Part shown: positions 36,812-38,772 of the stretch, one piece after another
Position numbering within the stretch: the stretch's first letter is position 1
Layout: the number at the start of each line of letters is the position of its first letter
From: a virus
IMG/VR virus record: IMGVR_UViG_3300048919_000249
Location: 1 to 42,646 of that record
Length of the DNA stretch: 42,646 nucleotides
Strand: one strand, 5' to 3'
Position numbers and translations under genes: made by a program
The notes under the pieces: model-generated
Seen by the model: the letters and a program-made list of their open reading frames with translations, nothing else
What the model was told of the DNA's origin: nothing
The model's database searches: none

Positions 36812-37669
36812 TTAAATCTCTGCTATCAAATCAAAGTCATCCATGAGGCTTGCCCCCAAACTAGTGAATTTACATGATTGACGGAGTGAAAGAACTGAAT
36901 TATGAAGCGCCACGGTTAGCGGATATGAAAATTCCGGGTGGACATAATCGTTATACTCAGCATCTTTGGCGAGCTTGACCATAAATGCAATGGCGGCAGC
37001 GGCATGCAAGCTTTGAAACGCAGGCCTATTAGTTTTTCTTACTTCTGAATAAACAGGTGCATCCCAGTCACTTGCTATCAAAGCATCTGAGCTTTGAAGC
37101 AGAGCAAGTGCTTGATGACCCATCTCATGAGCTAAGTCTAAAGCCAAATCTAATTGCGAGTAGACTCGCGGAAACCCGAGAAAAACCGCTCCTCTAGCAT
37201 ACTGACACGACCAGCCGCGGGCACGCGATTGTCGCAATGGAATAACCATATCCACGAGACTGGTATATACATCGTTTAGATAGTTTGATTTGGCTAACAT
37301 AAAATCAATAGCCGCAGTGAGCTCCAAAGTCACGCTCTTGCGACGACGACCGCTGACAAGTATTTTCCAATCCTCCCGAGATCCTATCAAGTTTGAAAGT
37401 GTTAAATCGTGATTCTCCTCCAAAAAGCTTTCTATTTTCTTTAAATGCGTTGTACTTGTCAGTATTGCACCTGGAGTGTGATTTATATAGCACAGTGCGC
37501 ACTGAGACATTGGCTTCGTAAGCAATGGGCGAATGCACAGCCAAGGCGTATAATGCGGGTAATCGTTATTATCAATTCTACGTGCAAGCTCTAAAGTCTT
37601 TCTTCGCAACTCAGCGCTCAGATATTTTATGTTGCCAACGCCCTCTTCACCAAATAATACTCCGGCCAT
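36812..37669 (-). CDS. HExxH-type protein A, candidate peptide hydroxylase
   Basis: A 285-aa protein. ATG 37669 is preferred over 37681 because GGAG lies six bases before it and the N-terminus then aligns residue for residue with the upstream paralogue. It shares YPHYTPWLCIRP (37-48) and ARGAVFLGFP (158-167). The motif H181-E-M-G-H185 (ALDLAHEMGHQALALLQS) sits in a helix and is followed by R211, R215-P216 and H222. By eye this resembles the HEXXH peptide-modification family associated with RiPP clusters, thought to be Fe/2-oxoglutarate peptide beta-hydroxylases. A zinc peptidase is the alternative. It is the last gene of a three-gene operon, six bases after its paralogue. Confidence 0.55.
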   Translation of the reverse strand: MAGVLFGEEGVGNIKYLSAELRRKTLELARRIDNNDYPHYTPWLCIRPLLTKPMSQCALCYINHTPGAILTSTTHLKKIESFLEENHDLTLSNLIGSREDWKILVSGRRRKSVTLELTAAIDFMLAKSNYLNDVYTSLVDMVIPLRQSRARGWSCQYARGAVFLGFPRVYSQLDLALDLAHEMGHQALALLQSSDALIASDWDAPVYSEVRKTNRPAFQSLHAAAAIAFMVKLAKDAEYNDYVHPEFSYPLTVALHNSVLSLRQSCKFTSLGASLMDDFDLIAEI

Positions 37670-37687
37670 TTGGCACTCCATTTGCGC

Positions 37688-38572
37688 TCAACATGTCTCC
37701 GAAAGTTCTTCCATTTCATCCAATACTTTGGATCCGGCATTGGTGACTGGCGCTCCCTTTCTGATCGAGTAAACAGCTTTCTTTAACGACTCTGCCAAAT
37801 CATCCCCATAGCCACTGACATGATCATCGGCTATTAATGGACGAGATTTCGAGCCATATATGGACTCAGACAAAATGCACATGTAAGAAATTGCAGCAGC
37901 TGACACTATTGCGTGGTAAGCAGTGCGCTCATCATTGCGAACCTCATAATGTATTAGCTTCTGTATGTGAGAGGGTTCAATCAAGGGGTCAGCAGACTGA
38001 AGATAAATTGCCGCTTGATGTCCCATGGCATGTGCTAATTGGAAACCAGCCAGCAGTCCAGTGCGCCCGCTTGGAAATGTTCGAAACACCGCTCCTCTAG
38101 CTAAACCGCTATCAAAGCCTGAAGGCTTAGCTCTATCCTGCGGTACTACGAATTTGATGAGGGTTGTATATAATGTATCCAGAAAGTATGAGCTGCGAAT
38201 TAACGCCCGCCCTTCTTGAAATGCTGCAACTGCATCCGGTCTTTTTGCCTTAATATCCTCCATGACAGGCCACTCAGAGGGGGGGACGGGCATCCCCCCT
38301 ACTAGGTCCTGTCCTTGCCCACACATAAATTCACTAATACATGATAAATAATGGGGGTCGGTTATTAATTGGCCAGGTTTGAATTTATAATTAACAAGCT
38401 CATCGCTTTTTATTGGTGAATTCAGAATTGGTCGAATACAAAGCCAGGGTGTGTAGTCTGGATAGCTTCTACCGTCGAGCTCTTCCGCCTTCTTCCTTGT
38501 TTTTTCATCTAAGTCCGAACAAAAAACCTGTAAAAAACTAATCGAAGAGTCTCCAAGCAGGAAATTCGACAT
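37688..38572 (-). CDS. HAxxH paralogue B of the HExxH protein
   Basis: A 294-aa paralogue of the following gene: YPDYTPWLCIRP (37-48), ARGAVFRTFP (158-167) and FQLAHAMGHQAAIYLQSADPLI are shared. The motif falls at exactly the same residues but reads H181-A-M-G-H185; the glutamate is replaced by alanine while both histidines stay. R212 and R216 are kept, and an H220 lies near but not aligned with H222 of protein A. A zinc peptidase would be dead with this change, whereas an iron enzyme using the histidines might still bind metal; it may also be a pseudo-enzyme partner or peptide-binding subunit. AGGAG precedes ATG 38572. It follows the small peptide gene by 44 bases. Confidence 0.6.
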   Translation of the reverse strand: MSNFLLGDSSISFLQVFCSDLDEKTRKKAEELDGRSYPDYTPWLCIRPILNSPIKSDELVNYKFKPGQLITDPHYLSCISEFMCGQGQDLVGGMPVPPSEWPVMEDIKAKRPDAVAAFQEGRALIRSSYFLDTLYTTLIKFVVPQDRAKPSGFDSGLARGAVFRTFPSGRTGLLAGFQLAHAMGHQAAIYLQSADPLIEPSHIQKLIHYEVRNDERTAYHAIVSAAAISYMCILSESIYGSKSRPLIADDHVSGYGDDLAESLKKAVYSIRKGAPVTNAGSKVLDEMEELSETC

Positions 38573-38616
38573 ATCGCGCTCCTTGGCTTCAGGTTTAATC
38601 CTGTGTGATTACGCTC

Positions 38617-38772
38617 TCAGGCTTTTGCGTGATTATATCCCCCCCTAGCCAAACCCTTAACGTATTCAGGATCCGGGTTTAAAATTGGAAAAGGTGCTGG
38701 TTCAGAGGTAGACTTCCGCTCTCCTACAGTTTTCTCCTTAGAACTTTCATCTTTTTTATCGTCATCTTTCAT
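38617..38772 (-). CDS. 51-aa RiPP-precursor-like peptide
   Basis: ATG 38772 has GGAGG seven bases upstream, which makes it a better start than the ATG 19 codons earlier. The peptide has a very charged Lys/Asp/Glu/Ser N-terminal half (MKDDDKKDESSKEKTVGERK) followed by a distinct C-terminal half, PAPFPILNPDPEYVKGLARG and GYNHAKA, rich in Pro, Asn, Asp, Tyr and His. A leader-plus-core layout, a Gly-Gly before the last six residues, and immediate coupling to two putative peptide-modifying enzymes are what is expected of a RiPP precursor. Asp/Asn/Pro/His residues in the core are plausible hydroxylation sites. No exporter or peptidase gene is adjacent. Confidence 0.55.
   Translation of the reverse strand: MKDDDKKDESSKEKTVGERKSTSEPAPFPILNPDPEYVKGLARGGYNHAKA

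What the first reader, a model, noticed from the sequence alone, without database searches (positions are those of the whole stretch)
36812..38772. RiPP-like cassette: charged small peptide plus two HExxH-type enzymes
Seen: three minus-strand genes in tight order (51-aa peptide, 294-aa HAMGH protein, 285-aa HEMGH protein) with good ribosome sites and gaps of 44 and 18 bases. Known: the HEXXH-motif peptide-modification family (Fe/2-oxoglutarate peptide beta-hydroxylases) occurs next to short precursors. Inference: this is a compact peptide-modification system. The absence of a transporter or radical-SAM gene suggests the product stays inside the cell, perhaps as a toxin or effector.
Basis: partly seen in the sequence, partly recalled or inferred. 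Interest (0 to 1): 0.85.

Follow-up and report, generated by a model that had tools for sequence, protein, structure and literature searches.

The report
Prophage peptide-hydroxylase cassette with dead twin
A Pseudomonas prophage carries, in a slot that related prophages fill with anti-phage defence genes, a tiny gene set that probably makes a chemically modified peptide: a 51-residue peptide, one iron/2-oxoglutarate peptide hydroxylase, and a twin of that enzyme that has lost key active-site residues.

Summary
Three minus-strand ORFs of 51, 294 and 285 aa lie in tandem with Shine-Dalgarno sites and gaps of 44 and 18 nt. The 285-aa HEMGH protein belongs to NCBIfam TIGR04267, the aKG-HExxH peptide beta-hydroxylases (49.4 bits, cut-off 40), and keeps 9 of 12 residues invariant in 14 family members. 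The 294-aa HAMGH protein is its diverged paralogue (29% identity, E=2e-44). It has lost the catalytic Glu and, in the ungapped alignment, the downstream His-Ala: a probable pseudoenzyme partner, not a second HExxH enzyme. The window is a Pseudomonas prophage. The cassette sits in a sharply bounded slot between umuC and a small phage gene; siblings put restriction-modification, a NACHT protein or nothing there, and here the neighbour is PADLOC candidate PDC-S19. No orthologue was found in 399 Pseudomonas or 398 Pseudomonadaceae genomes, IMG/VR, phages or plasmids. Best reading: an intracellular, probably RiPP-like peptide-modification module carried as accessory, probably defence-type, cargo. 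That the peptide is the substrate, that the proteins pair, and any anti-phage role are inference. Structure prediction failed (pLDDT 36).

The parts
34068..38910 (.). variable cargo slot of the prophage, between the end of umuC and the stop of p97; holds p445, PDC-S19 and the cassette
   Evidence: similarity to sibling prophages stops at 34017-34067 and resumes at 38911-38912; L110 alone shares p445; siblings hold other cargo or nothing
38780..38784 (-). Shine-Dalgarno GGAGG of the peptide gene
   Evidence: sequence
38617..38772 (-). 51-aa putative precursor/substrate peptide MKDDDKKDESSKEKTVGERKSTSEPAPFPILNPDPEYVKGLARGGYNHAKA; charged N-terminal half, Pro/Asn/Asp/His-containing C-terminal half
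   Evidence: no homologue
37688..38572 (-). 294-aa HAMGH protein, diverged paralogue of the hydroxylase, probable pseudoenzyme/partner
38018..38032 (-). HAMGH (residues 181-185): E of HExxH replaced by A
38430..38455 (-). YTPWLCIRP motif in the HAMGH protein
36812..37669 (-). 285-aa aKG-HExxH-type peptide beta-hydroxylase (289 aa if started at 37681)
   Evidence: TIGR04267, 49.4 bits vs cut-off 40; profile comparison 95.7%
37115..37129 (-). HEMGH motif (residues 185-189, numbered from the first ATG); with R215, R219-P220, H226-A227 it forms the family signature
37527..37552 (-). YTPWLCIRP motif in the HEMGH protein
35402..36463 (-). neighbour: PADLOC candidate single-gene defence system PDC-S19 (weak HEPN/DUF3644 matches)
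34087..35424 (-). neighbour: 445-aa protein overlapping PDC-S19; 93% identical protein beside umuC in L110
38911..39204 (-). 97-aa phage protein (phrog_12397), right border of the slot
36589..36622 (.). copy 1 of an imperfect 35-bp direct repeat flanking p97 + cassette (29/35 identical to copy 2)
39257..39291 (.). copy 2 of the same repeat

Best explanation
A compact, probably RiPP-like peptide-modification module in an accessory (probably defence) slot of a Pseudomonas prophage. The 285-aa protein is an Fe(II)/2-oxoglutarate enzyme of the aKG-HExxH family (shown by profile and signature residues). It would oxidise the 51-aa peptide encoded first in the operon, most likely by beta-hydroxylating one or more residues of its C-terminal half (...EPAPFPILNPDPEYVKGLARGGYNHAKA), with the charged N-terminal half as leader (inferred). 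The 294-aa paralogue has lost the HExxH glutamate, so it would not catalyse; it would pair with the active enzyme and help bind or position the peptide (inferred). With no exporter or protease gene, the product would stay in the cell and act there, plausibly against superinfecting phage (inferred from the slot).
For: The HEMGH protein matches TIGR04267 at 49.4 bits against a cut-off of 40. It keeps G164, H185, E186, H189, R215, R219, P220, H226 and A227, 9 of the 12 residues invariant in 14 family members. The only PDB relative is ChlH 8s5f, aligned over HExxH..R..RP..LHA (E=0.026). The paralogue is homologous over its full length but reads HAMGH, with R-T for R-P and V-S for H-A. Synonymous sites between the two genes are saturated (27 identical codons of 78 against 23.9 expected), yet both are intact and share YTPWLCIRP and ARGAVF; so the copy is old and both are kept under constraint, a pseudoenzyme rather than a decaying pseudogene. 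The tandem order with ribosome sites, and the 0.55% chance of the peptide ORF, support an operon. Characterised aKG-HExxH enzymes modify small precursor peptides on Asp, His, Phe, Gln and Pro (PMC12636437; PMC13060819). Inactive-plus-active heterodimers have precedent (Fe/aKG pair CorB-CorD, cited in PMC13060819). Slot: sharp borders; siblings hold type II RM with Vsr, a NACHT protein or nothing; PDC-S19 is next door. Intracellular lanthipeptides with anti-phage action are reported from defence islands (PMC12360287).
Against: No orthologous cassette was found anywhere, so co-conservation of the peptide with the enzymes is untested. The peptide has no family match. The structure model failed (pLDDT 36). 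The HAMGH protein alone matches the family only weakly, and a YHA three residues upstream could stand in for the lost His. No leader-binding domain, protease, transporter or other maturase was recognised. None of the comparison loci examined had a paired inactive copy.
Confidence: 0.55

Rival explanations
1. The enzyme pair hydroxylates a protein of the host or of an infecting phage rather than the 51-aa peptide; the peptide is an independent small gene or a regulator of the pair.
For: The peptide has no homologue or recognisable leader; no other RiPP genes are nearby; the slot holds defence proteins that need no peptide in siblings.
Against: The tandem order with tight gaps and a strong ribosome site puts the peptide first in the same operon; family members characterised in the papers read act on precursor peptides.
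Confidence: 0.2
2. The HEMGH protein acts as a zincin-like metallopeptidase that cleaves the peptide (toxin activation or processing), with the HAMGH protein as inactive partner.
For: HExxH is the zincin signature. PflC hydrolyses its substrate at the same site when the leader is absent and is metal-promiscuous there (PMC12636437). Inactive/active metalloprotease pairs exist (cited).
Against: The match is to the hydroxylase model, including R..RP..HA positions conserved across that family; no peptidase family matched in Pfam or NCBIfam.
Confidence: 0.12
3. A conflict module in which the peptide is a toxin or antitoxin and the enzyme pair controls its activity (toxin-antitoxin-like), giving abortive infection or prophage maintenance.
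For: Small charged peptide encoded upstream of its modifiers, no exporter, prophage cargo next to PDC-S19.
Against: No similarity of any part to known toxin-antitoxin families.
Confidence: 0.1
4. Decaying remnant: the HAMGH copy is a pseudogene and the 51-aa ORF is chance, so there is no working system.
For: Loss of key residues in the HAMGH protein; no homologues anywhere; a 51-aa ORF without a ribosome site arises in 10.8% of shuffles.
Against: Both long frames are intact despite saturated synonymous divergence, with shared motifs conserved at the protein level; a ribosome site sits before each gene.
Confidence: 0.05

Closest known systems
PflC/PosC aKG-HEXXH enzymes of Pseudomonas (pfl and pos clusters; PMC12636437)
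   Same: aKG-HExxH family; one small precursor peptide; Pseudomonas; no protease in the cluster
   Different: NHLP-type precursor, MNIO-nitroreductase fusion, GNAT and transporters in the cluster; ours is a shorter enzyme, very distant from the Pseudomonas family members found here, phage-borne, with an inactive twin and none of the other genes
ChlH / radical-SAM-associated HExxH (PDB 8s5f; radical-SAM-fused relative cited in PMC12636437)
   Same: HExxH..R..RP..HA signature; the only solved structure matched (E=0.026)
   Different: acts with a radical-SAM enzyme on a pre-cyclised peptide; none here
PesO of nitrilobacillin biosynthesis (PMC13060819)
   Same: aKG-HExxH enzyme acting on a small peptide; it hydroxylates Pro, and our peptide has a Pro-rich stretch; the cluster also encodes a metal-site-deficient homologue of another enzyme (PesX)
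   Different: PesX is an inactive MNIO that competes for a partner protein, not an inactive HExxH paralogue; the cluster has MNIO, AS-like enzyme, proteases and transporter
CorB-CorD Fe/aKG pair (cited in PMC13060819)
   Same: active Fe/aKG enzyme plus inactive homologue as heterodimer
   Different: as far as stated there a Fe/aKG system outside the HExxH family; our pairing is inferred only
Intracellular anti-phage lanthipeptides in defence islands (reviewed in PMC12360287)
   Same: ribosomal modified peptide beside defence genes, acting inside the cell
   Different: lanthipeptide chemistry, Actinomycetota chromosomes; no anti-phage effect shown for our cassette

Membership tests
aKG-HExxH peptide beta-hydroxylase (TIGR04267) - HEMGH protein | score above the curated cut-off | tested here: met
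   49.4 bits, cut-off 40, E=5e-13
aKG-HExxH peptide beta-hydroxylase (TIGR04267) - HEMGH protein | HExxH and the downstream R-x3-RP-x5-HA signature | tested here: met
   H185 E186 H189 R215 R219 P220 H226 A227; 9 of 12 invariant positions of 14 members kept
aKG-HExxH peptide beta-hydroxylase (TIGR04267) - HEMGH protein | zincin-like fold as in ChlH 8s5f | tested here: inconclusive
   AlphaFold2 model of mean pLDDT 36, not usable; weak sequence match to 8s5f
aKG-HExxH peptide beta-hydroxylase (TIGR04267) - HEMGH protein | Fe(II)/2-oxoglutarate-dependent hydroxylation of a peptide | not testable with these tools
   needs enzymology
aKG-HExxH peptide beta-hydroxylase (TIGR04267) - HAMGH protein | score above the curated cut-off | tested here: not met
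   no match even at E=10; homologous only through its 29%-identical neighbour
aKG-HExxH peptide beta-hydroxylase (TIGR04267) - HAMGH protein | catalytic Glu and downstream His-Ala | tested here: not met
   HAMGH; R-T for R-P; V223-S224 in place of His-Ala in the ungapped alignment; a shifted YHA at 219-221 leaves the His uncertain, not the Glu
RiPP biosynthetic gene cluster | short precursor ORF beside a peptide-modifying enzyme | tested here: met
   51-aa ORF with GGAGG, 44 nt upstream; 0.55% by chance
RiPP biosynthetic gene cluster | precursor conserved with the enzyme in related loci | tested here: inconclusive
   no related loci found
RiPP biosynthetic gene cluster | the peptide is modified and matured | not testable with these tools
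   needs mass spectrometry
anti-phage defence system | lies in a defence hotspot | tested here: met
   PDC-S19 adjacent; the same slot holds RM+Vsr in L085 and a NACHT protein in L094
anti-phage defence system | match to a known defence family | tested here: not met
   PADLOC: none of the three cassette proteins
anti-phage defence system | reduces phage plating | not testable with these tools
   needs plaque assays

The most novel reading that the evidence does not exclude
A previously undescribed kind of prophage-encoded defence system: a heterodimer of an aKG-HExxH hydroxylase and its inactive paralogue activates a 51-residue peptide inside the lysogen to block superinfecting phage.
Probability: 0.2. 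Interest if true: 0.85.

Novelty: new variant of a known kind. Interest (0 to 1): 0.6.

Why it matters
aKG-HExxH enzymes were only recently recognised as a new iron-site architecture, and those in the papers read come from bacterial biosynthetic clusters. I found no other phage-borne relative in IMG/VR or 50,697 phage records (those scans see close relatives only). A minimal peptide-plus-enzyme-plus-inactive-twin set would be a simple model for how these enzymes recognise substrates, and a testable case of a modified peptide as prophage cargo beside defence genes.

Tried and rejected
Relatives: P0003, P0002, P0001, the pair alignment A1, the family alignment A2 and the YTPWLCIRP DNA pattern in IMG/VR; A1 in genome contigs; A1 in 399 Pseudomonas and 398 Pseudomonadaceae genomes, with a positive control on the window; phage and plasmid records: all empty. 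TIGR04267 in Pseudomonas (35 of 399), Gammaproteobacteria (9 of 369) and Pseudomonadota (17 of 398) found only distant members; best pairwise E about 1e-4, from small ORF sets. Inactive HExxH twins in 15 family neighbourhoods: none. Rejected: two active HExxH enzymes (HAMGH lacks the Glu); plain peptidase family (no match).

Full report
What is there. Three minus-strand ORFs lie in tandem: a 51-aa peptide (38617-38772), a 294-aa HAMGH protein (37688-38572) and a 285-aa HEMGH protein (36812-37669), with gaps of 44 and 18 nt. Each start has a purine-rich ribosome site. The 285-aa start is preferred over the 289-aa one because GGAG precedes it and it aligns with Met1 of the paralogue. A peptide ORF this long with such a ribosome site arises in 0.55% of shuffles of the gap.

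What the enzymes are. The HEMGH protein matches NCBIfam TIGR04267, aKG-HExxH-type peptide beta-hydroxylase, at 49.4 bits against a cut-off of 40. Pfam, PHROGs and PADLOC give nothing for it. In the PDB only ChlH (8s5f) is related, weakly, across the HExxH..R..RP..LHA stretch. A profile built from 45 loci found with TIGR04267 aligns with it at 95.7% probability; a couple of those loci (for example L217) look like unrelated HExxH proteins, so the profile is slightly impure, but the cleaner 14-member alignment A2 gives the same signature. Of its 12 invariant columns the HEMGH protein keeps nine. The HAMGH protein is a full-length paralogue (29% identity, E=2e-44), yet it does not match TIGR04267 even at E=10. 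It lacks the glutamate, has R-T for R-P, and has V-S where the family has H-A. A Tyr-His-Ala three residues upstream means the loss of the His depends on the alignment; the loss of the Glu does not.

Is the twin a pseudogene? Probably not. Of 78 identical residues (Met and Trp left out), 27 use the same codon against 23.9 expected if codons were independent, so synonymous sites are saturated. Over that time both frames stayed open and kept YTPWLCIRP and ARGAVF. YTPWLCIRP is encoded twice in the window and in no IMG/VR contig by exact pattern. This N-terminal region is outside the part matched by TIGR04267 and may serve substrate binding or pairing (inference).

Where it sits. The window is an IMG/VR record of a contractile-tailed Pseudomonas prophage; its tail protein finds 80 loci in bacterial genomes, nearly all Pseudomonas, and 80 viral loci. 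Against these, similarity ends at the end of umuC (34017-34067; L110 alone continues into p445) and resumes at the p97 stop codon (38911). Between lies a slot holding p445, PDC-S19 and the cassette, at 39-47% GC against 62% for the late genes. In siblings the slot holds a type II restriction-modification set with Vsr (L085), a NACHT-domain protein (L094), a methyltransferase plus unknown genes (L052), or 42 bp (L063). The immediate neighbour matches PADLOC candidate PDC-S19 at E=2e-162. It is a cargo slot rich in defence genes; that the cassette is itself defence is inference by association.

How rare. No orthologue appeared in 399 Pseudomonas or 398 Pseudomonadaceae genomes with the pair profile, which does find both genes in the window, nor in genome contigs, IMG/VR, phages or plasmids. 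The contig scans rely on short peptide patterns, so only close relatives would be seen. TIGR04267 itself is present in 35 of 399 Pseudomonas genomes (29 over cut-off), mostly as proteins of about 387 aa, none close to ours. None of the 15 family neighbourhoods examined had a second, inactive copy.

How it probably works. Shown: family membership of the HEMGH protein, paralogy, loss of the Glu in the HAMGH protein, operon-like layout, slot. Inferred: (1) the HEMGH protein uses Fe(II), O2 and 2-oxoglutarate; (2) its substrate is the 51-aa peptide; (3) the charged N-terminal half guides and the C-terminal half is modified; it contains Pro, Phe, Asp and His, residue types that aKG-HExxH enzymes are reported to hydroxylate; (4) the HAMGH protein is an inactive partner, as in the Fe/aKG pair CorB-CorD (cited); (5) the product stays inside the cell. 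The role of the product is unknown; intracellular anti-phage lanthipeptides in defence islands are a precedent, not evidence.

Known versus new. The enzyme is a divergent new member of a known family. The set of peptide, enzyme and inactive twin in a prophage is, as far as these searches and papers go, not described: a new variant of a known kind. The main weaknesses are the absence of relatives, which leaves the peptide's role without comparative support, and the failed structure prediction.

Noticed in passing
window 31613-32013: Tandem array of a 52-bp unit, 7.7 copies, 91% matches, between dam and umuD; no Rfam match.
   Followed up: partly
window 34087-36463: Overlapping pair: a 445-aa protein of unknown family and a PADLOC PDC-S19 protein with weak HEPN/DUF3644 matches; possibly a two-gene defence unit.
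   Followed up: partly
window 39344-39497 and 40166-40305: Largely non-coding segments of about 150 bp, 70-85% similar to segments between cargo genes in many sibling prophages; may be shared regulatory or recombination sequences of the cargo region.
   Followed up: partly
window 36589-36622 and 39257-39291: Imperfect 35-bp direct repeat (29/35) bracketing p97 plus the cassette; a similar piece in L118.
   Followed up: partly
window 40824-42243: STAS-like DUF4325 protein overlapping a 362-aa phrog_3364 protein, an operon-like pair of unknown role.
   Followed up: no
L228:5018-8062: ATP-grasp-like protein, 43-aa ORF with ribosome site, then an aKG-HExxH protein: a possible small RiPP cluster in a gammaproteobacterium.
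   Followed up: no
L223:2604-7956: aKG-HExxH gene beside what look by eye like YcaO/TfuA and ThiF-like genes in a Pseudomonas genome; not checked with profiles.
   Followed up: no
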